Below, in pieces: positions 30,055 through 39,481 of a DNA stretch of 40,164 nucleotides. The notes under the pieces were generated by a model, which saw only the letters and a program-made list of their open reading frames with translations, searched no databases and was not told the origin of the DNA. This stretch comes from a virus. Made by a program: the position numbers and the translations under genes. The stretch spans positions 1 to 40,164 of IMG/VR virus record IMGVR_UViG_3300048694_000100; one strand, 5' to 3'. Within the stretch, counting starts at the first letter, position 1. Every line of letters starts with the position of its first letter.

Positions 30055-30619
30055 ACAACGCGCTCAAGCCTTAGTAGTCCTAGAATCTAATGGCGGCAAT
30101 GTTTTGCAAACTGCAAACCAAATCGGCATAGATGAAAAGACCATTAGGAACTGGGTCGGACAAAATTCCGACCTAAAAAGCGATATGGCTATTGCAACTG
30201 CTGAGATTCTTCCTGATACTAGAGAAGATTTCATAGACGAACTTAAAACAGTTCGCAACAAAGTATTGCGCCAATTACACGATAACATCGCTGACCTTAA
30301 AGCGCGTGAAGCCGCAGTAACCCTAGGTATTCTCATAGACAAAACAGAACTGCTCGAAGGCAATGCAACTACTCGCACGGCAGTTGTAGGAAGTGGCGAA
30401 ACTGTAAATGAAGCAATTGAACGAATTAAACGAGAAATTGAATCCCGAGTTGTGCGCGGTGAGATACTTGAAGTGGAACAGCCCGGAGAGGGGCTTAGCG
30501 AGGCCGAATCAATTACCACCGATGCAGAAGTGGTCGAATTGGTTAGTGATGGCGGGGAGAGGGTTTGGCAAGACGAGGCTGGGAGCGGAGTGGTTAGCAG
30601 CCCAAGCGATTCGCAATGA
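30038..30619 (+). CDS. Terminase small subunit
   Basis: A 193-residue protein with an N-terminal HTH (AYTPEQRAQALVVLESNGGN, then IGIDEKTIRNWVGQN) and a central helical oligomerisation region to residue ~115 (RNKVLRQLHDNIADLKAREA). It is the DNA-recognition subunit of the packaging motor. The C-terminal ~70 codons overlap the large subunit gene in another frame; that tail is Glu/Gly/Ser-rich and probably tolerant of change. Confidence 0.85.
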   Translation: MAYTPEQRAQALVVLESNGGNVLQTANQIGIDEKTIRNWVGQNSDLKSDMAIATAEILPDTREDFIDELKTVRNKVLRQLHDNIADLKAREAAVTLGILIDKTELLEGNATTRTAVVGSGETVNEAIERIKREIESRVVRGEILEVEQPGEGLSEAESITTDAEVVELVSDGGERVWQDEAGSGVVSSPSDSQ

Positions 30620-31757
30620 CGGCGTTCGTTGCGCCATAGTTGCTAGAACTAACAACGATGTAAGAACAGTTTGCCTAGAAGGCGTATCAGGAATCCTTAG
30701 CATCTTGCGTGAATACGATGCGATTGCCGATTGGAACAAAACGCTCGGCACAATCAAACTTAAAAACGGCTCAATCATTTCTTCTTATTCTGCCGAAGAA
30801 CCTGACCGATTACGCGGACCACAACATCATTTTGCTTGGCTAGATGAATTAGCCGCTTGGCAATATCCTGATACTTATGACCAATTACAGTTTGGACTTC
30901 GCCTAGGAGATAATCCTCAAAGCGTTATTACAACAACGCCAAGGCCAACTAAACTTATTAGAGATTTAATTAAACGCGAAACAACAGTTGTAACTCGCGG
31001 CTCAACATTTGATAACGCTGAAAACCTTTCACAATCTGCTCTACTTGAAATGCAAATGCGTTACGGCGGAACTCGCTTAGGCCAACAAGAACTTTATGGC
31101 GCTGTATTAGATGATAATCCCGGCGCTCTTTGGAATCGCGCAATGCTTGATAGCAATCGCGTTCAATTAGACAATCTGCCACCATTAGTCAGAATCGTAG
31201 TCGGCGTAGACCCTGCTGTAACTAGCGGAGAAGATTCAGATAGCACGGGAATCGTTGTGGCTGGTATGTCTAACGATGGCCATTATTACATTTTAGAAGA
31301 TGCAACTATAAAAGCATCACCTCAAGTATGGGCCGAAAAAGCCGTATCTAAATTTGAAGCGCACAAGGCAGACCGCATCATTGCTGAAACTAATAACGGC
31401 GGTGACTTGGTGCTTCACCTTTTACAACAAGTAAGTCCAAATGTGCCAGTTAAGAAAGTAACTGCATCACGCGGTAAGCAGGTTCGCGCAGAACCTATCG
31501 CCGCACTCTTTGAACAAGGGCGAGCGCATTTGGTTGGTTACTTCACAGAGTTAGAAGATGAACTTTGTGAGTGGGAACCGGGAACTAATATGAAATCCCC
31601 TGACCGTATGGATGCGATGGTTTGGGCGCTTACAGATTTGAGTGAAGGCTCAGCAACACTTAACTTCCTAGCGGCTCTTGCCGTTTTCTGCCCTAAATGC
31701 AAAACGCCAAACACAAAAGGTGCGGCTAATTGCAAATGTGGCGCAAGCCTTCTATAA
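30408..31757 (+). CDS. Terminase large subunit with C-terminal zinc ribbon
   Basis: A 449-residue packaging motor. Walker A GRGFGKT at residues 50-56, Walker B FAWLDELAAW near residue 143, coupling motif TTTPRPTK near 175, and nuclease-domain acids at VVGVDPA (~residue 270) and DRMDAMVWAL near residue 405. The last ~25 residues, FCPKCKTPNTKGAANCKCG, add a zinc ribbon that is not part of a standard large terminase. The true start is unclear: ATG 30408 lacks a good ribosome site and in-frame GTG/TTG codons follow. Any of them leaves the Walker A coded inside the small subunit gene. Confidence 0.9.
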   Translation: MKQLNELNEKLNPELCAVRYLKWNSPERGLARPNQLPPMQKWSNWLVMAGRGFGKTRLGAEWLAAQAIRNDGVRCAIVARTNNDVRTVCLEGVSGILSILREYDAIADWNKTLGTIKLKNGSIISSYSAEEPDRLRGPQHHFAWLDELAAWQYPDTYDQLQFGLRLGDNPQSVITTTPRPTKLIRDLIKRETTVVTRGSTFDNAENLSQSALLEMQMRYGGTRLGQQELYGAVLDDNPGALWNRAMLDSNRVQLDNLPPLVRIVVGVDPAVTSGEDSDSTGIVVAGMSNDGHYYILEDATIKASPQVWAEKAVSKFEAHKADRIIAETNNGGDLVLHLLQQVSPNVPVKKVTASRGKQVRAEPIAALFEQGRAHLVGYFTELEDELCEWEPGTNMKSPDRMDAMVWALTDLSEGSATLNFLAALAVFCPKCKTPNTKGAANCKCGASLL

Positions 31758-31766
31758 GGAGAAACA

Positions 31767-32126
31767 ATGCCTGTTCAATCAATAGACCAAACGCCTGAAG
31801 CGTTAAATCTAACTCTACGCCAATACCAAGAGTGGAACATCGCATTTGAATATACAGATTCAAGTGGAAATGTTATTGATTTAACTGGCTATACTCCTGA
31901 ATTACAATTTCGCACATCTGCGCTCGCAAAGACAACTGTTCTTTCATTAACTGTTGGAAGCGGAATTACTTTCGTACCAAACGCTAATCCTCAAGTAACT
32001 ATCTCTGCTGATATTGAAGTAGCACCGGGTAAGTACGAGTGGGATTTAAGATTAACTGCTGTTGGTCAAGGTTCATTATTTTTAGGTCGCGGTGAAGTTA
32101 TTATTCAGGCAGGAGTAACTCGCTAA
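31767..32126 (+). CDS. Beta-rich baseplate/fibre accessory protein
   Basis: A 119-residue protein starting MPVQSIDQTPEALNLTLRQY, with YTDSSGNVIDLTGYTPELQF and EVAPGKYEWDLRLTAVGQGS: the immunoglobulin-like pattern of BppU-type N-terminal domains found before fibre genes. It may attach the collagen-like fibre to the baseplate. Strong ribosome site ATAAGGAGAAACA; stop overlaps the fibre gene. Confidence 0.7.
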   Translation: MPVQSIDQTPEALNLTLRQYQEWNIAFEYTDSSGNVIDLTGYTPELQFRTSALAKTTVLSLTVGSGITFVPNANPQVTISADIEVAPGKYEWDLRLTAVGQGSLFLGRGEVIIQAGVTR

Positions 32127-35100
32127 TGGCCGACATAATCAATGTTCAGGCTGTTACGCCTGTAATCAATGTTTCATCAGTTGGACTTCGTGGCGCACAA
32201 GGTCTGCAAGGACTTACAGGCGCGCAAGGAACACAAGGCGTTCAAGGAACTACTGGCATCCAAGGTAATCAAGGATTGCAAGGTGTAATCGGTGCGCAAG
32301 GAATTCAAGGCGCACAAGGTTTAATTGGCGCTCAAGGAACAACAGGCTCTCAAGGAACTTTTGGTGCAACAGGCGCACAAGGCGCACAAGGATTACTAGG
32401 TATCCAAGGTAATCAAGGCACAATAGGAACTCAAGGCTTAACAGGTATTCAAGGTTTAGGTGGATTACAAGGAACTCAAGGTATCCAAGGCCGCCAAGGA
32501 ACAACTGGTACTCAAGGTGCAAACGGAATTCAAGGTTCGCTTGGAACACAAGGAACTATTGGTGTTCAAGGCTTACAAGGTACAACAGGAATCCAAGGTG
32601 CAATAGGTACTCAAGGTTCAACAGGTATCCAAGGAACACAAGGTGTTCAGGGTACAACTGGAACACAAGGTAATACTGGAACACAAGGATTAACAGGTAC
32701 AGGAGTTCAAGGCTCAACAGGTCTGCAAGGCGTACAGGGAGTTCAAGGACAAACTGGTGCTGGTGGAACAGTTGCTTATTACGGAAACTTCTTAAGCACT
32801 TCAACACAAACTGCTACATCTGCTAACACCGCTTATGTTCTTAATTTAGATACCACAACTGAATCTCGCGGAATTTCTGTTGTTAGTAGCAATAGATTAA
32901 CTGTTGTAAATCCCGGCACATACAAGATTGATATTTCTGCTCAGGTTTATATTTCAAGTGCAGGTAACGCTAACTTCTGGCTTCGTAAAAACGGTACAGA
33001 TATAACTGAATCTAATAGCGAAGTTTCTGTATCAAATCAGAACGCTTATGTATTAGCAACAGTTCCATTTGAAATGACTTTGGCTGCTAATGATTATATT
33101 CAAATTGTTTGGGCTTCAAATACTTCTGGCGCACAAGTTCAATCTCAAGTTGCAACAACAACTCCTTACGCTTCACCTGCCGTTCCCGGACTTATCGTTA
33201 CAATGCAAGAAGTTGCTTATGCGATTCAAGGTGCAACTGGTCTAACAGGTTCACAAGGCGCAAACGGCTCACAAGGTACAACTGGATTAAACGGTTCACA
33301 AGGCACTCAAGGAATTATTGGTAGCCAAGGCACAACAGGTTCTACTGGACTTCAAGGTTTAACAGGTGCGCAAGGTACAACTGGTTCAACTGGTATTCAA
33401 GGTTCAACTGGAACTCAGGGCGCTATTGGTATTCAGGGTAATAACGGAACTCAAGGAACAACTGGCGCACAAGGAACTATTGGTGCGCAAGGTTTAACTG
33501 GAACTAATGGCACACAAGGTTCTACTGGTGCAACAGGTTTGCAAGGTGTTCAAGGATTTGTTGGGCCACAAGGAACAACTGGTTCTAACGGAATTCAGGG
33601 AACACAAGGCACAACTGGAATTCAAGGAACTGTTGGCGCACAAGGATTAACAGGAACAACTGGCTCACAGGGAACAACAGGTTCTCAAGGTACTGCTGGA
33701 TTCGTTGGTTCTAATGGAGCGCAGGGAACACAAGGTATTCAAGGAAATAGTGGAACTAATGGCTCACAAGGAACTTCTGGATTAAATGGAAGTCAAGGAG
33801 CAAACGGTTCTAACGGAAGCCAAGGTACACAAGGAATTCAGGGAACAACAGGTATCCAAGGTTCACAACCACCTGTAACTTTATCTAAATGGATTTACAC
33901 TTCAACTGGCGGCGAAACAACTCTTAGCGGATTAGATAATAACTCTAATACTCTTTCTTACACCGCAGGAAAAGAACAAGTATTTCTTAATGGTGCTTTA
34001 CTTGTAGTCGGCGCAGATTACACCGCTACATCAGGCACATCAATTGTTCTAGTATCTCCTTTAGTTGTTGGCGATAACATTGAAGTTCTTAGTTTTAGTT
34101 CATTCGCCGTTCCATCTGCATCTGCAACTGCTTCACAATGGCGCTATGTTGCAACAGGTGGCGAAACTTCACTAAGCGGATTAGATTCAACTTCAACAAC
34201 TCTTGCTTATACTATTGGCCAAGAATTAGTATTCCAAAACGGCGTTCTGCTATATCGCGGAACTGATTACACAGCAACAACTGGAACAACTATTTCGCTA
34301 ACAAATGCTTTAATTGCAAGCGATATCATAAATGTTTGGTCACCAAACGCGTTCACAGTTGCAAACGCAATCCCACTATCTCAATTCACCGCAGTTGGAG
34401 ATTTACTTGCTGGAACTGGCGCATCAACAGAAACTAAGGTTTCAGTTGGCGCAAACGACCAAATCCTTGTAGCCGATTCATCCCAATCAACAGGTATGGC
34501 TTGGAAGTCCTACGGAGCGCAGGTTGTTGCTGGGAAGAACGCAGTAATCAATGGCGGGTTTGATATTTGGCAGCGTGGAACTTCATTAAGCAATAGTTCT
34601 ACATCGGCTGGTTCAGGATACAATGCTGATAGATGGCAAAGTTACGCATCAGGAAATGCAATTACAGTTAGCCGTCAATCAACTAGCGATACTACCAACC
34701 TTCCAAATATTCAATATTGTTCTCGTTTTCAACGCAATAGTGGACAAACTGGAACTGGTGGATTCTACAATGTTTATACTGCTGAAACATCTGAATCAAT
34801 TAAGTATGTAGGCAAAACAGTAACATTAAGTTTCTATGCTCGTGCTGGCGCTAACTTTAGTTCTAGTTCAAATATACTAACTGGCGCAATGCTTTATGGA
34901 ACTGGTACTGACCAAAATATATTTGCCTTTACTGGTCAAACAACTTTTGCATCATCAAACTTTACTTTGACTACTACTTGGCAACGATTTACTGTAACTG
35001 CCGCAGTTTCAACTTCTGCTACTCAATTAGGGTTAAATATTTATTACAACCCAACAGGCACAGCAGGAGCCAACGACTACTTTGAAATCACAGGCGTACA

Positions 35101-35509
35101 ACTAGAAGTCGGCTCTACCGCTACCCCATTCAGCCGTGCTGGTGGAAATATTCAGGGTGAGTTGGCTGCTTGCCAGAGGTATTACTACAGAAACACATCA
35201 GCAACTTCAAATAGTTCATATTCATATTTTATGGGTGGTACGCCAAATACAACATCTAATCTTCTTGGAACATTTACACTTCCAGTTCCAATGAGGACTA
35301 CGCCTTCTGTTAGTTATTCAGGTTCTTTTATGGTTTATCAAAATAACTCTATATTTAGTGGAGTTAATGCTATAGCCAGCGATGGTGGCAACATTCAGAC
35401 TTATGGATTATCTGTGGGCGGCCTTTCAGGATTAACTATTGGTTATGCGGCAAATTTAAGAGCAAACAATAACAACACTTGCTATATTGAATGGAGTGCT
35501 GAACTGTAA
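32126..35509 (+). CDS. Collagen-like tail fibre with C-terminal binding module
   Basis: An 1127-residue fibre. Residues ~19-213 and ~370-585 are Gly-X-Y repeats, nearly all GxQ or GxT, with almost no proline. Between them (~215-360) lies a C1q/TNF-like beta domain (YKIDISAQVYISSAGNANFW). After the second block come two copies of a ~75-residue repeat (WIYTSTGGETTLSGLD and WRYVATGGETSLSGLD), then a C-terminal module starting AGKNAVINGGFDIWQRGTS, with TGVQLEVGSTATPF and an end in SAEL. That module recurs in the next two fibres. It probably binds host sugar. Confidence 0.88.
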   Translation: MADIINVQAVTPVINVSSVGLRGAQGLQGLTGAQGTQGVQGTTGIQGNQGLQGVIGAQGIQGAQGLIGAQGTTGSQGTFGATGAQGAQGLLGIQGNQGTIGTQGLTGIQGLGGLQGTQGIQGRQGTTGTQGANGIQGSLGTQGTIGVQGLQGTTGIQGAIGTQGSTGIQGTQGVQGTTGTQGNTGTQGLTGTGVQGSTGLQGVQGVQGQTGAGGTVAYYGNFLSTSTQTATSANTAYVLNLDTTTESRGISVVSSNRLTVVNPGTYKIDISAQVYISSAGNANFWLRKNGTDITESNSEVSVSNQNAYVLATVPFEMTLAANDYIQIVWASNTSGAQVQSQVATTTPYASPAVPGLIVTMQEVAYAIQGATGLTGSQGANGSQGTTGLNGSQGTQGIIGSQGTTGSTGLQGLTGAQGTTGSTGIQGSTGTQGAIGIQGNNGTQGTTGAQGTIGAQGLTGTNGTQGSTGATGLQGVQGFVGPQGTTGSNGIQGTQGTTGIQGTVGAQGLTGTTGSQGTTGSQGTAGFVGSNGAQGTQGIQGNSGTNGSQGTSGLNGSQGANGSNGSQGTQGIQGTTGIQGSQPPVTLSKWIYTSTGGETTLSGLDNNSNTLSYTAGKEQVFLNGALLVVGADYTATSGTSIVLVSPLVVGDNIEVLSFSSFAVPSASATASQWRYVATGGETSLSGLDSTSTTLAYTIGQELVFQNGVLLYRGTDYTATTGTTISLTNALIASDIINVWSPNAFTVANAIPLSQFTAVGDLLAGTGASTETKVSVGANDQILVADSSQSTGMAWKSYGAQVVAGKNAVINGGFDIWQRGTSLSNSSTSAGSGYNADRWQSYASGNAITVSRQSTSDTTNLPNIQYCSRFQRNSGQTGTGGFYNVYTAETSESIKYVGKTVTLSFYARAGANFSSSSNILTGAMLYGTGTDQNIFAFTGQTTFASSNFTLTTTWQRFTVTAAVSTSATQLGLNIYYNPTGTAGANDYFEITGVQLEVGSTATPFSRAGGNIQGELAACQRYYYRNTSATSNSSYSYFMGGTPNTTSNLLGTFTLPVPMRTTPSVSYSGSFMVYQNNSIFSGVNAIASDGGNIQTYGLSVGGLSGLTIGYAANLRANNNNTCYIEWSAEL

Positions 35510-35658
35510 TGCCAACTTATGAAACATACGAAACATCTTTAGGCGAAACTCTTATCCGCAGAACAGATGAAGATGGCAAGGTTTGGTCTATTCCTAAAGA
35601 CCCAGCCAACAGCGACTACCAAGTCTATCTAGGCACACTAACAAATGGTGATAAATAA
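35509..35658 (+). CDS. Fibre partner protein, copy 1
   Basis: A 49-residue protein starting MPTYETYETSLGETLIRRTD, with the block DGKVWSIPKDPANSDYQVYL. It overlaps the fibre stop and the next fibre start by one base each (TAATG). Copies 2 and 3 follow each later fibre. Small genes after fibre genes often encode folding helpers or tip attachments, so a fibre-specific chaperone is the leading idea. This block shares 42 identical bases with copy 2. Confidence 0.75.
   Translation: MPTYETYETSLGETLIRRTDEDGKVWSIPKDPANSDYQVYLGTLTNGDK
35563..35604 (+). repeat. 42-bp direct repeat, copy 1
   Basis: Identical to 36749-36790 and coding for the same block (DEDGKVWSIPKDP) in partner genes 1 and 2. Recombination between them would delete or add one fibre cassette of 1186 bp. 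Confidence 0.9.
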
Positions 35659-36680
35659 TGACTACTTCTCGCGCTCTTTCTACTGGTCAATCACAAGAAA
35701 ATATTGGTGGTGCGGTTTCGCCGTTTGTGGCTGGGAAGAATAAAATCATTAACGGCGATTTCAACATTTGGCAACGAGGTACTAGTTTCTCAACTCCTGC
35801 TGATGGTAGTTATACGGCAGATAGATTTATTACTTATCAAAATGGAACTGGCCCAACTAGAACTATTAGTCAGCAAGCCTTTACTCCTGGAACTGCTCCT
35901 GTTGCTGGATATGAAAGTGCCTACTTCTTTCGCTATCTATGCTCAAATTTAGGGTCAGGTAACTCTTATCAGGCCATTCAAAATCGCGTAGAAGATGTAA
36001 GAACTTTCGCTGGCCAAACTGCAACTTTTTCATTTTGGGCTAAGGCGGATTCTGCAAAAACTATTACAGTTTCAATTCAGCAAAACTTTGGTTCTGGTGG
36101 TTCTAGCGCAGTTTCTGTTACATATACTGCTATCACTCTTTCAACTTCTTGGGCTAGATATTCTGTAACAATGAGCGTTCCAAGTATTTCAGGTCAAACT
36201 ATTGGGTCAAGTTCATTCTTTCAGGTTGGCTTTGAATTAGGCTCTCAAACAATCACTCTAGATACTTGGGGCTGGCAACTAGAAGCAGGTTCAACCGCTA
36301 CTCCATTCACCACCGCAACAGGAACAATCCAAGGGGAATTAACCTTGGCTCAACGATACTATGTTAGATACAGTATTCCTGGAAGTTACACGGATTCTAT
36401 TATGGGAATCCAATGGGATACAGGAAGCGCAAGATTTGTTCTATATTTACCTGCTACTATGAGAGCCTTTCCATCGGTAAGTCAAACAAATCTAGCCGTC
36501 AGCGATATTATGACTTTTAACTCTAGTATAACTGGTTTTGGAACAGGAACTAGTGGCGTAATAGACTATAAATATCTACATCTTTATGCAACCTTTAGTT
36601 CTGTTGGTGCCGCTTGGCGTGCAGTTTTTATTCGTACCGAAGGTTCTGCTGGTTATTTTGAATTGAATTCGGAGTTATAG
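35658..36680 (+). CDS. Second fibre: receptor-binding module protein
   Basis: A 340-residue protein with a short N-terminal linker (residues 1-20) and then the module AGKNKIINGDFNIWQRGTSF, AGYESAYFFRY, DVRTFAGQTATFSFWAKADS, WQLEAGSTATPFTTATGTIQ and an end in ELNSEL. The fold reads as a carbohydrate-binding jelly roll. It lacks the collagen stalk of the first fibre and so may be an alternative tip or a second adhesin. Confidence 0.8.
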   Translation: MTTSRALSTGQSQENIGGAVSPFVAGKNKIINGDFNIWQRGTSFSTPADGSYTADRFITYQNGTGPTRTISQQAFTPGTAPVAGYESAYFFRYLCSNLGSGNSYQAIQNRVEDVRTFAGQTATFSFWAKADSAKTITVSIQQNFGSGGSSAVSVTYTAITLSTSWARYSVTMSVPSISGQTIGSSSFFQVGFELGSQTITLDTWGWQLEAGSTATPFTTATGTIQGELTLAQRYYVRYSIPGSYTDSIMGIQWDTGSARFVLYLPATMRAFPSVSQTNLAVSDIMTFNSSITGFGTGTSGVIDYKYLHLYATFSSVGAAWRAVFIRTEGSAGYFELNSEL

Positions 36681-36682
36681 AA

Positions 36683-36853
36683 ATGAATTATCAAGAAGTT
36701 ACTATTAAGGGCAATGAGTTTTCTTCCGATATTACAAACATTCAACGCACAGATGAAGATGGCAAGGTTTGGTCTATTCCTAAAGACCCATCTAATTCAG
36801 ATTACCAAGCCTATCTAAAATGGGTAGCGAATGGTGGAGGCACAAATGAGTAG
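36683..36853 (+). CDS. Fibre partner protein, copy 2
   Basis: A 56-residue protein starting MNYQEVTIKGNEFSSDITNI, with DEDGKVWSIPKDPSNSDYQA in the middle. Clear paralogue of the proteins at 35509 and 37859; the N-terminal part has diverged while the middle block is conserved. It overlaps the third fibre's start by eight bases. Confidence 0.75.
   Translation: MNYQEVTIKGNEFSSDITNIQRTDEDGKVWSIPKDPSNSDYQAYLKWVANGGGTNE
36749..36790 (+). repeat. 42-bp direct repeat, copy 2
   Basis: Identical to 35563-35604; see there. Identity at all codon positions implies recent exchange or duplication. Confidence 0.9.
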
Positions 36854-37856
36854 AAGTCAATTAACCTCAACAGACCAACAAAACTCAGGTGGGCCAGTTG
36901 CTCCGTTCGTTGCTGGTAAGAACAAGATTATCAATGGGGATTTCTATATCAACCAAAGAGGATTTAGTTCAACTTCTACAAATACAACTTATGGTTTTGA
37001 CCGTTGGAGTATTTTTCTATCAGGCGGTCCAGTAACTTATTCTGCACAGACTTTCACTGCTGGCTCTGCTCCAGTTGCAGGCTATGAATCAACAAACTTT
37101 GCAAGAATTGTTACTTCTCAATCTGGCACAAGTGACTTCGCTTTCTTATCTCAACCGATTGAAGATGTAAGAACCTTCGCAGGGCAAACAGTAACTCTTT
37201 CATTTTGGGCTAGGTCATCTAGCGGCACTCCGAATGTAGGCTTTCACTTCAATCAAACTTTTGGTAGTGGTGGCTCATCAGATGTTTTAACAAGTGCTGG
37301 CGTTACTGCAATCACAACTTCTTGGGCTAGGTATTCAAAGACAGTTACTCTCCCATCAATCGCTGGACAAACAATTGGAACTGGCTCTTATCTTAGAGCG
37401 TGTGTATTTACTTCTGCTGGAACTTCAATTTCAGGTGCAGGTTATCCTGCAGTTGGAGCGCAATCTGCAACAATTGATATCTGGGGAGTGCAAGTAGAAC
37501 GCGGCTCAGTAGCCACCCCATTCACAACTGCCACAGGCACAATCCAAGGGGAGTTGGCGGCGTGTGAATACTACTATCAAACAAAAGTCTGGAATGGTCT
37601 TAAAAGCCCAAGCAATTATTGCTGGCTTGCTATTCCGCTTAATCGCCGTATGAGAACAACTCCTAGTATTTCTTACAATGATTCTCAGGGTAATCAATCC
37701 AGAATTTACATCCTAAATTCAACAGGCACGGCTACATTCAATATCAATACAATCGTAGTTTCGGGAAATGACCCTGCTTCGGCTATTATTGTAACAAATA
37801 ATACCGATTCCTATTATCAATTTGGGCTTATTTTAATGGCAAGTGCGGAGTTATAA
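36846..37856 (+). CDS. Third fibre: receptor-binding module protein
   Basis: A 336-residue paralogue of the second fibre: AGKNKIINGDFYINQRGFSS, AGYESTNFARI, DVRTFAGQTVTLSFWARSSS, VQVERGSVATPFTTATGTIQ, ending ASAEL. The middle and the C-terminal third differ most from the other copies, as expected if they face the receptor. ATG 36846 is chosen by GGTGGAGG five bases before; upstream in-frame ATG 36831 and GTG 36834 lie in the partner gene. Confidence 0.8.
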   Translation: MSRSQLTSTDQQNSGGPVAPFVAGKNKIINGDFYINQRGFSSTSTNTTYGFDRWSIFLSGGPVTYSAQTFTAGSAPVAGYESTNFARIVTSQSGTSDFAFLSQPIEDVRTFAGQTVTLSFWARSSSGTPNVGFHFNQTFGSGGSSDVLTSAGVTAITTSWARYSKTVTLPSIAGQTIGTGSYLRACVFTSAGTSISGAGYPAVGAQSATIDIWGVQVERGSVATPFTTATGTIQGELAACEYYYQTKVWNGLKSPSNYCWLAIPLNRRMRTTPSISYNDSQGNQSRIYILNSTGTATFNINTIVVSGNDPASAIIVTNNTDSYYQFGLILMASAEL

Positions 37857-37858
37857 TT

Positions 37859-38020
37859 ATGGCATCATACGAAACTATTACCCTTCCAGATAACAGCACA
37901 GTAATCATAATGATTAACTCAGATGGTGTGCGTTGGGCTGTGCCAACTGACTTATCTAACTCAGACTACCAAGCCTATCTAGTATGGAAAGCGGCTCAAC
38001 CTACCGCCCCACAAGCCTAA
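37859..38020 (+). CDS. Fibre partner protein, copy 3
   Basis: A 53-residue protein starting MASYETITLPDNSTVIIMIN, with SDGVRWAVPTDLSNSDYQAY in place of the DGKVWSIPKDP block of copies 1 and 2. The SDYQ(A/V)YL core is conserved in all three. It ends the fibre array. No good ribosome site is seen, so translation may couple to the fibre stop three bases before. Confidence 0.7.
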   Translation: MASYETITLPDNSTVIIMINSDGVRWAVPTDLSNSDYQAYLVWKAAQPTAPQA

Positions 38021-38038: not shown

Positions 38039-38485
38039 ATGGTAATTAGAGAATTGCAATATGAAGAACTTTCAATAATTGCTAAACTAGATAAAGAGAT
38101 TTATCCCATTGAAGGCAGTTGGTCTTTAGAGTTATTTCAAAAAGATTTTAATAGTCCTAACCGCTATTATTTAGTAGCCGAAGATAATGGTTCAATTATT
38201 GGATATGCTGCCACATCAATAGATGATGGCATAGCAGATTTGACTATGAATACTGTTATTCCTGAATATCGCAATAAGGGAATTGGGCGTAAATTCTTAG
38301 AACTTCGTCTAAAGTGGATTGAATCTAAGGGCGTAAATGAAGTCTTTTTGCATACTAGGACTAATAACGAAGCCATCAAAAACCTCGTTTTTCAATATGG
38401 TTTCAAAGAAGTTGAGATTATTAAAGACTATTACCCTAACGGCGTAGAGGCTATTAAAATGGAGCGTAAGGCACAATCTTTATAG
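38039..38485 (+). CDS. GNAT-family N-acetyltransferase
   Basis: A 148-residue acetyltransferase. The acetyl-CoA loop RNKGIGRKFL at residues ~82-91 and the later KNLVFQYGFKEVEIIKDYYP segment are typical of RimI-like GNATs. It would transfer acetyl to an amine, target unknown. It has its own promoter and lies between fibre genes and the sugar cluster, so it looks like a moron gene aimed at the host or at capsid/fibre modification. Its last five codons form part of a 19-bp direct repeat. Confidence 0.85.
   Translation: MVIRELQYEELSIIAKLDKEIYPIEGSWSLELFQKDFNSPNRYYLVAEDNGSIIGYAATSIDDGIADLTMNTVIPEYRNKGIGRKFLELRLKWIESKGVNEVFLHTRTNNEAIKNLVFQYGFKEVEIIKDYYPNGVEAIKMERKAQSL
38467..38485 (+). repeat. 19-bp direct repeat, left copy
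   Basis: TAAGGCACAATCTTTATAG occurs here, coding the GNAT end, and at 38797-38815, non-coding after the next gene's stop. The pair bounds a 330-bp unit with its own promoter. Confidence 0.85.
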
Positions 38486-38821: not shown

Positions 38822-39481
38822 TTAGTTAAACCACAACATTCCAACATCGGCAGTAGGGCGTAATCCTGAATCTTCCCAACCTGCTTCTTCCCAGTTAGTT
38901 TTAGAATATCTAATCCAACTATCTAAATTGAAATATCTAATCGGATAACTTTCTTTAGGTTCTTGGCAATGATGTTCAATATATTGCGGGCGAACTCGCT
39001 CATAACCTAGTTTCTCTAGGTATTCGATTTGTAATTGGTGGTCATCAAGAGTTTCAAGTGTCCACTCAAAAGCAAGTTTGCCGTAACGCTTAGTCATACC
39101 GCGCAATACAGACCACTCAGCACCCTCAACATCAATCTTAATCAATGAGGGTTCACCATAAAGTTTGGCTAAAGTATCAATAGTAATAGTGGTACAAGAA
39201 GTCGTACGATACGCTTTACCTGCATACGGTAGAGATTCGTCAGTTAGCCAATCTTTGTTAATGCTTGAAAGTCCATCTTCAACGCACTCGTAAAACTCGA
39301 CTTGTTCAAAGTCTTTATCAGATGCGGCAAGATTAACTATTTTAACTCGCTTATCGTAAATAAAGTTCTTAACAAGTTCTTTTACAATATTGCCCGGCTC
39401 TAACGCAACAACTTCATAACCTTTATCTAACGCGGCTTTAGTCCATTCTCCGCGATTAGCACCTATATCAAACGCTAACAT
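38822..39481 (-). CDS. FkbM-family methyltransferase
   Basis: A 219-residue SAM-dependent methyltransferase. AFDIGANRGEWTKAALDKG (residues 3-21) is the SAM-binding loop, VVALEPG follows, and SLIKIDVEGAEWSVLRG at residues ~113-129 is the FkbM signature. Such enzymes commonly O-methylate sugars. It is the last gene of the minus operon, with ribosome site AAGGAGG, and overlaps the TPR-like gene by 14 bases. A role in modifying a surface glycan fits the GH130-like neighbour. Confidence 0.85.
   Translation of the reverse strand: MLAFDIGANRGEWTKAALDKGYEVVALEPGNIVKELVKNFIYDKRVKIVNLAASDKDFEQVEFYECVEDGLSSINKDWLTDESLPYAGKAYRTTSCTTITIDTLAKLYGEPSLIKIDVEGAEWSVLRGMTKRYGKLAFEWTLETLDDHQLQIEYLEKLGYERVRPQYIEHHCQEPKESYPIRYFNLDSWIRYSKTNWEEAGWEDSGLRPTADVGMLWFN

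What the first reader, a model, noticed from the sequence alone, without database searches (positions are those of the whole stretch)
32126..38020. Triplicated receptor-binding module, each with a small partner gene
Seen: three consecutive genes end in the same module (VAGKN..INGxF start; STATPF or SVATPF; IQGEL; final (S/A)xEL). Each is followed by a 49-56 residue paralogue with the SDYQxYL core, in overlapping frames. Partners 1 and 2 share 42 identical bases. Only the first fibre has a collagen stalk. Inference: an adhesin array in which each tip has its own chaperone or cap, able to gain, lose or swap units by recombination. I do not recognise this fibre-plus-partner tandem as a described system.
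Basis: partly seen in the sequence, partly recalled or inferred. Interest (0 to 1): 0.7.

Follow-up and report, generated by a model that had tools for sequence, protein, structure and literature searches.

The report
Phage fibre-tip cassettes with mini-chaperones
An uncultured tailed phage carries three fibre-tip genes in a row, each followed by its own roughly 50-residue helper gene; related phages show that the variable tip end and its helper are exchanged together, so this is a compact, widespread version of the known fibre-plus-chaperone pairing that lets phages change what they bind.

Summary
In detail: three fibre-tip genes (F1, F2, F3), each followed by a 49-56 aa paralogue (p1, p2, p3). 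"Triplicated receptor-binding module" is misleading. The shared part is a carbohydrate-binding-module (CBM) sandwich; the roughly 110-residue C-terminal head differs completely between the three, and cassettes of one phage are no more alike than cassettes of different phages. In 77 IMG/VR loci fetched by tip similarity alone, 105 of 109 complete tips have such a partner. Arrays of 1, 2 and 3 cassettes occur. Partner similarity follows the head, not the shared module, and DNA mosaics show head and partner exchanged together, with the left edge at the conserved ATPF...IQGEL stretch. The tip's last codons double as the partner's ribosome-binding site. Prophage, tailocin-like and isolate relatives of the tip are followed by larger chaperone-like proteins, several with DUF4376, whose N-terminal ~45 residues often match the partner. 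Best reading: a minimal, head-specific tail-fibre chaperone (or cap) without the usual helical body. It works like the V22 gp26/gp27 and syringacin Rbp/chaperone pairs but lacks the DUF4376 domain. New variant of a known kind. Chaperone activity and physical contact are inferred, not shown.

The parts
31767..32126 (+). 119 aa protein between terminase and fibre 1; PHROG of unknown function (phrog_1084), weak resemblance to L-shaped tail fibre assembly (phrog_3304)
32126..35509 (+). F1: stalked fibre with collagen repeats (two blocks), then CBM module 34518-35163 and head ~35164-35506
34518..34582 (+). conserved start of CBM module in F1 (VAGKN..INGGFDIWQRGTS), DNA repeat D10 copy 1 (other copies 35719-35783 in F2, 36901-36965 in F3)
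35084..35163 (+). conserved anchor in F1 (GSTATPFSRAGGNIQGEL), DNA repeat D6 copy 1
   Evidence: mosaic left boundaries fall here in relatives
35509..35658 (+). p1: 49 aa partner of F1 (SDYQ type); ATG overlaps the F1 stop (TAATG)
35658..36680 (+). F2: stalkless tip, short N-terminus MTTSRALSTGQSQENIGGAVSPF, CBM module, head ~36341-36677
36261..36340 (+). conserved anchor in F2 (GSTATPFTTATGTIQGEL), D6 reference copy
36669..36680 (+). F2 last codons TCG GAG TTA TAG; contains GGAG, Shine-Dalgarno-like, for p2 (ATG at 36683)
36683..36853 (+). p2: 56 aa partner of F2 (SDYQ type)
36846..37856 (+). F3: stalkless tip (ORF opens at ATG 36831; 36846 gives the conserved MSRSQLTST start), CBM module, head ~37556-37853
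37476..37555 (+). conserved anchor in F3 (GSVATPFTTATGTIQGEL), D6 copy 3
37845..37856 (+). F3 last codons GCG GAG TTA TAA; contains GGAG, Shine-Dalgarno-like, for p3 (ATG at 37859)
37859..38020 (+). p3: 53 aa partner of F3 (SDYQ type)

Best explanation
Each unit is a carbohydrate-binding fibre tip (CBM sandwich plus a specificity head) followed by a dedicated mini-chaperone that recognises that head. The partner is a three-stranded sheet with a C-terminal helix, equivalent to the N-terminal domain of larger tail-fibre chaperones. It is translated from a ribosome-binding site written into the tip's own last codons, so it is made next to the nascent tip; it then binds the head, helps it fold and trimerise, and either leaves or stays as a cap. 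Because head and partner must match, they are inherited and exchanged as one cassette, by homologous recombination that enters at the conserved ATPF...IQGEL stretch (and, when another tip follows, may leave at the conserved VAGKN start). F1 is the stalked fibre; F2 and F3 are stalkless tips whose attachment point on the virion is unknown. Shown: adjacency, family-wide co-occurrence, head-partner co-inheritance, shared mosaic blocks, coding constraint, embedded ribosome-binding site, predicted partner fold, homology to the N-terminus of larger fibre-adjacent proteins. Inferred: physical binding, chaperone or cap activity, the sugar-binding role.
For: Slot occupancy: 105 of 109 complete tips in loci fetched by tip similarity have a partner, 47 of the SDYQ class and 58 of a second class FTSMxKxxY; the two classes align by profile comparison (probability 90, single-pair E 1.6e-6). 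Head specificity: when heads match but CBM modules do not (16 pairs) partner similarity is 0.79 of self score and the class always agrees; when CBM modules match but heads do not (6 pairs) it is 0.13 and the class agrees in 17%; 0 of 2000 permutations; the head-matched pairs form 13 clusters. Mosaics: left edge inside or within 15 nt of the ATPF-IQGEL anchor in 15 of 18 blocks against 12% expected; all 8 blocks above 90% identity contain the whole partner. Coding: pN below pS in 217 of 217 partner pairs, pooled ratio 0.37. Ribosome-binding site: when the partner starts +2/+3 after the tip end, Ala is GCG in 66/66 and Glu GAG in 74/75 non-redundant cases (background 9% and 31%); at -3 it is 2/14 and 0/15, at +9 or more 2/10 and 1/11, with the amino acids AEL kept. 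Chaperone link: relatives of the tip in bacterial genomes are followed by 70-199 aa genes whose N-terminus matches the partner profile (L214 1e-8, L213 8e-8, L194 1.5e-7) and in isolates by DUF4376 proteins (OC p362, TM61_346, Silvanus gp20); DUF4376 protein V22 gp27 is required for V22 fibre function (PMC7289586). Predicted partner fold, pLDDT 91-95, three strands plus helix. CBM: Pfam CBM_4_9 above cut-off in F2 and F3, Foldseek to CBM4/16/22.
Against: No direct evidence of contact: the second model covers head and partner but no coordinates were available, and partner confidence there is lower (35-85 by block). V22 gp27 and A5 gp9 themselves do not match the partner profile (2-3 bits). The A5 fibre works without its chaperone (PMC10579305). 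33 complete tips, mostly in one group of loci (L023-L035), have no adjacent partner yet most keep the AEL end, so AEL is not simply a partner-docking signal. Head and partner are physically adjacent, so part of their co-inheritance is expected from linkage; the control against the downstream tip had too few informative cases. Right-hand mosaic boundaries are loose (2 of 9 near the next VAGKN). No solved structure was recognised for the head.
Confidence: 0.66

Rival explanations
1. The partner is a permanent part of the virion: a cap or a second adhesin sitting on the tip, as Tfa does in phage Mu or gp38 in T2-like phages, rather than a transient chaperone.
For: Head-specific pairing fits a cap equally well; partner lengths and tails vary a lot, as expected for an exposed protein; Tfa of Mu is reported to stay bound (discussed in PMC7289586).
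Against: The core (IP.D.ANSDYQ.YL) is strongly conserved and constraint is purifying, unlike a hypervariable adhesin; homologous N-termini sit on larger chaperone-like proteins.
Confidence: 0.2
2. The downstream stalkless cassettes are a reservoir: alternative head-plus-partner units that are copied into the stalked F1 gene by recombination at the shared anchors, as silent cassettes are in other variation systems.
For: Only F1 has a stalk; the anchors D6 and D10 flank every unit in the same genome; heads are exchanged at these anchors between phages.
Against: F2 and F3 have their own starts, a conserved N-terminus MSR.QLTST..QN.GG.VAPF in relatives and Shine-Dalgarno-bearing junctions, so they look expressed; single stalkless tips occur alone in many loci; within-locus heads and modules are not more alike than between-locus ones, so no sign of recent copying inside one genome.
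Confidence: 0.08
3. The partner is a connector that joins the end of one tip to the start of the next, building a chain of tips from one stalk.
For: In arrays the partner lies between consecutive tips with overlaps of 1-8 nt and stalkless tips lack any other obvious attachment domain.
Against: Single-cassette loci have a partner too (54 of 57 single runs in complete contexts) and the last tip of arrays usually has one; partner identity follows the upstream head, with little trend towards the downstream module in the few cases available.
Confidence: 0.05

Closest known systems
Alteromonas phage V22 gp26/gp27 and A5 gp8/gp9 tail fibre plus DUF4376 intermolecular chaperone (PMC7289586, PMC10579305)
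   Same: Chaperone gene immediately downstream of the receptor-binding fibre; the pair is shared between unrelated phages; published models have a three-stranded sheet of the chaperone pairing with the fibre head, and our partner is predicted as a three-stranded sheet plus helix.
   Different: gp27 and gp9 are 195 and 239 aa with a C-terminal DUF4376 helical body; our partners are ~50 aa and end before any such body; no sequence match between them by profile (2-3 bits); V22 and A5 carry one pair, not an array.
R-type syringacin (Pseudomonas tailocin) Rbp plus chaperone (PMC6331570)
   Same: Receptor-binding protein and adjacent chaperone replaced together by localised recombination while flanks stay; the pair is sufficient to change target range, shown experimentally there. 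Related tips in other Pseudomonas genomes are followed by a 70-72 aa protein with the partner motif.
   Different: One pair per locus, contractile bacteriocin; exchange covers most of the fibre gene. Whether the syringacin chaperone itself matches the partner profile was not tested.
Small hypothetical proteins after tail fibre genes of Methylophilales phages MEP402 and Venkman, Synechococcus phage RN05-S, Prochlorococcus phage P-SCSP2, uncultured phage MedDCM-OCT-S45-C4
   Same: 53-60 aa, profile E 5e-11 to 3e-17, same slot after a fibre or carbohydrate-binding-domain protein; RN05-S has two such pairs in a row.
   Different: Annotated only as hypothetical; no function assigned.
Mu Tfa, T4 gp38 and T2-like gp38 (tail fibre assembly proteins)
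   Same: Encoded directly downstream of the fibre and act on its distal tip (literature knowledge; also PMC7289586).
   Different: About 20 kDa, different families; no Pfam match of our partner to any tail fibre assembly family.
CBM4/CBM16/CBM22 carbohydrate-binding modules
   Same: Fold of the shared tip module.
   Different: Here in a phage tip, flanked by conserved anchors and followed by a variable head.

Membership tests
DUF4376 intermolecular tail-fibre chaperones (V22 gp27 type) | C-terminal DUF4376 domain (PF14301) | tested here: not met
   No Pfam match for p1, p2, p3; the proteins end after ~50 aa
DUF4376 intermolecular tail-fibre chaperones (V22 gp27 type) | Encoded immediately downstream of a receptor-binding fibre | tested here: met
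   0-3 nt from the tip stop in most of >200 cases
DUF4376 intermolecular tail-fibre chaperones (V22 gp27 type) | Sequence homology to V22 gp27 / A5 gp9 | tested here: not met
   2.2 and 2.8 bits with the partner profile
DUF4376 intermolecular tail-fibre chaperones (V22 gp27 type) | Needed for the fibre to become active | not testable with these tools
   needs co-expression and binding assay
N-terminal domain of larger fibre-adjacent chaperone-like proteins in bacterial genomes and isolates | Significant profile match in the N-terminal ~45 residues, same slot after the same tip family | tested here: met
   L214 9.8e-9, L213 7.7e-8, L194 1.5e-7, L192 3.9e-7, L203 4e-6, L211 5e-6; Alfacinha1 gp17 6e-14
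Tfa / gp38 tail fibre assembly families | Pfam match | tested here: not met
   no family at E<=1 for p1-p3
Intramolecular chaperone domains (K1F, T5) | Fused C-terminal domain removed by autoproteolysis | tested here: not met
   partner is a separate gene in every locus; no fused copy among 144 partner matches
Carbohydrate-binding modules CBM4_9 | Pfam PF02018 above gathering score / CBM sandwich fold | tested here: met
   F2 29.0 and F3 26.8 bits against cut-off 25.9 (F1 not listed); Foldseek to 1k42, 1gui, 4xun (model of relative L025)
Carbohydrate-binding modules CBM4_9 | Binds a glycan | not testable with these tools
   needs binding assay

The most novel reading that the evidence does not exclude
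A widespread, so far unnamed tip-diversification system in uncultured aquatic phages: arrays of CBM tips in which the variable head and a 50-residue head-specific chaperone form one exchange unit, entered through a conserved anchor inside the tip gene, with the chaperone's ribosome-binding site encoded by the conserved last residues of the tip; a phage can hold several units at once and trade them with a common pool.
Probability: 0.4. Interest if true: 0.68.

Novelty: new variant of a known kind. Interest (0 to 1): 0.52.

Why it matters
It links a large set of unannotated 50-residue phage genes to a concrete partner and a likely role, gives a simple rule for finding the specificity-determining end of fibres in uncultured phages (the stretch between IQGEL and the partner), and supplies what may be the smallest natural fibre chaperones known, with hundreds of natural pairings against which pairing rules can be tested.

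Tried and rejected
Recent triplication: rejected, because cassettes within a locus are not more alike than between loci (partner 0.183 vs 0.206, CBM 0.255 vs 0.289, head 0.136 vs 0.161). AEL end kept only as a ribosome-binding site: rejected, because the residues stay when the synonymous codons lose GGAG. Terminase-anchored survey: 12 loci, mostly fragments or other gene orders, not useful for counting cassettes. The first alignment of F3 used the wrong frame; corrected. The first fused model used an alignment in which tip rows slid onto the partner, so only its CBM and partner parts are used. The models come without coordinates, so tip-partner contacts could not be measured. Rank correlation of partner with head or CBM similarity over all pairs is weak (0.08 and 0.00) because most heads are too divergent to compare; the contrast appears only among closely related heads or modules. 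Search of solved structures by sequence with the partner: nothing meaningful. The second partner class gave no match in cultured phages.
Full report
What is there. The window is a 40,164-base IMG/VR virus record without end repeats, a tailed phage with portal, tail tube, tape measure, Dit-like protein and terminase. After the terminase (30408-31757) come a 119 aa protein and then F1-p1-F2-p2-F3-p3. F1 alone has a collagen stalk.

Anatomy of a tip. From VAGKN to about IQGEL lies a module that matches CBM_4_9 (F2 29.0, F3 26.8 bits, cut-off 25.9) and whose predicted fold in a relative matches CBM4, CBM16 and CBM22 structures. NCBIfam gives a sub-threshold match to a phage head spike fibre domain (33 bits, cut-off 36). 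After IQGEL comes a head of about 110 residues (distance from IQGEL to the stop 300-360 nt in 250 tips) that is unrelated between F1, F2 and F3. Nearly every tip ends in AEL or similar (238 of 250 end in EL).

The partner is general. Scans of viral contigs with the partner and with the tip gave 156 sources with 265 tip matches and 144 SDYQ-type partner matches. Reading the slot after each complete tip showed that where the SDYQ type is missing there is usually another 43-62 aa ORF, MxNVTFxEVE...HAIIDRGNGEFTSMLKSTYDEM, starting 0-3 nt from the tip stop. In the 77 loci first fetched by tip similarity, 105 of 109 complete tips have a partner. Loci fetched by the partner are biased and are not used for this rate. 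Runs in complete contexts have one (57), two (26), three (8) or four (1) tips; four of the three-tip runs belong to one group of contigs whose tips lack adjacent partners.

It is a translated gene. pN is below pS in 217 of 217 comparable partner pairs (pooled ratio 0.37). When the partner starts 2 or 3 nt after the tip end, the tip's final Ala-Glu is GCG GAG almost without exception (66/66 and 74/75 in non-redundant loci; background in the same tips 9% and 31%), which places GGAG about 8 nt before the partner ATG. When the partner starts at -3 or at +9 or later, the codons fall back towards background while the amino acids stay. So the codons serve the partner's translation, and the residues are kept for another reason. 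F2/p2 and F3/p3 of the window follow this; F1/p1 overlaps as TAATG and uses GCT GAA.

The partner belongs to the head. Tips with similar heads but different CBM modules have similar partners of the same class (16 pairs, 0.79 of self score, 100% same class); tips with similar modules but different heads do not (6 pairs, 0.13, 17%); no permutation of 2000 reaches the observed value. The head-matched pairs form 13 clusters. Similarity blocks in DNA start at the ATPF...IQGEL stretch in 15 of 18 cases and, in all 8 blocks above 90% identity, run through the whole partner. Examples: L077/L079 have identity 0.3-0.6 just before -400, 0.96-1.0 from -300 to +200, then none; L048/L049 share the upstream part, differ across the CBM body, and share head and partner again. 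The right edge is less sharp. The anchor is itself conserved, so it marks where exchange is compatible, not necessarily the exact crossover.

Not a triplication. Cassettes of one locus are no more alike than cassettes of different loci in partner, module or head. The array looks assembled from, or trading with, a common pool.

What the partner probably is. The same tip family in bacterial genomes (Pseudomonas, Rhizobium, Chromobacterium and uncultured groups) is followed by genes of 70-199 aa, and in nine of them the first ~45 residues match the partner profile at E 1e-4 or better. In isolates the same slot holds a DUF4376 protein (Ochrobactrum OC p362, Rhizobium TM61_346, Stenotrophomonas Silvanus gp20) or a stand-alone partner (MEP402, Venkman, MedDCM-OCT-S45-C4, RN05-S twice in tandem, P-SCSP2). 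DUF4376 protein gp27 of Alteromonas phage V22 is required for its fibre to bind cells and is not part of the final complex (PMC7289586); the A5 fibre is active without its chaperone, and models there show a three-stranded chaperone sheet extending the sheet of the fibre head (PMC10579305). Our partner is predicted, at pLDDT 91-95, as three strands and a helix (in the relative L025). The simplest reading is that the partner is this head-recognition part on its own. The V22 and A5 proteins themselves do not match the partner profile, so the claim is likeness of role and slot, plus sequence homology to other fibre-adjacent proteins, not membership of the DUF4376 family.

Known and new. Joint exchange of fibre and chaperone is known: in Pseudomonas syringae tailocins the pair is replaced by localised recombination and is enough to change the target range (PMC6331570). 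New here, as far as the searches go, are the size of the partner, its presence after nearly every tip of this family, the tandem arrays of stalkless tips, the exchange unit that begins inside the tip gene, and the embedded ribosome-binding site. I found no paper describing these, within an open-access library only.

Limits. Contact between tip and partner, chaperone or cap activity, sugar binding and the place of F2 and F3 on the virion are inferred or unknown. The survey rests on similarity-fetched contigs of one collection. Profile comparison of the two partner classes is a single-pair statistic. Head-partner linkage may contribute to their co-inheritance.

Noticed in passing
window 36683-36853 and 36846: The reverse coupling also seems to exist: the last codons of p2 (GGTGGAGGCACAAATGA) carry GGAGG five bases before the F3 start, so partner ends may hold the ribosome-binding site of the next tip.
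   Followed up: no
L023, L024, L028, L029, L034, L035: A group of contigs with three or more tips in a row without adjacent partners; in several, a single SDYQ partner lies 1.3-1.6 kb after the array. One partner might serve several tips, or belong to another fibre.
   Followed up: partly
L027, L044, L045, L076, L079, L108 and others: Partners of both classes often end in the same tail (TLPSNSSxPQAGE or LAANSAPQ...), shared across otherwise unrelated partners; possibly a second recombination anchor at the partner's end.
   Followed up: no
F2, F3 and relatives (L025, L027, L113, L119): Stalkless tips share a short N-terminus MSRxQLTSTxxQNxGGxVAPF and no other attachment domain; how they are fixed to the virion is open.
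   Followed up: no
window 38822-39481 (-): FkbM-family methyltransferase next to the fibre cluster on the opposite strand, possibly glycan modification.
   Followed up: no
window 38039-38485 (+): GNAT acetyltransferase directly after p3.
   Followed up: no
window 35658-36677: Sub-threshold NCBIfam match of the tip to a phage/GTA head spike fibre domain (NF048003), so some relatives of this CBM may sit on heads rather than tails.
   Followed up: no
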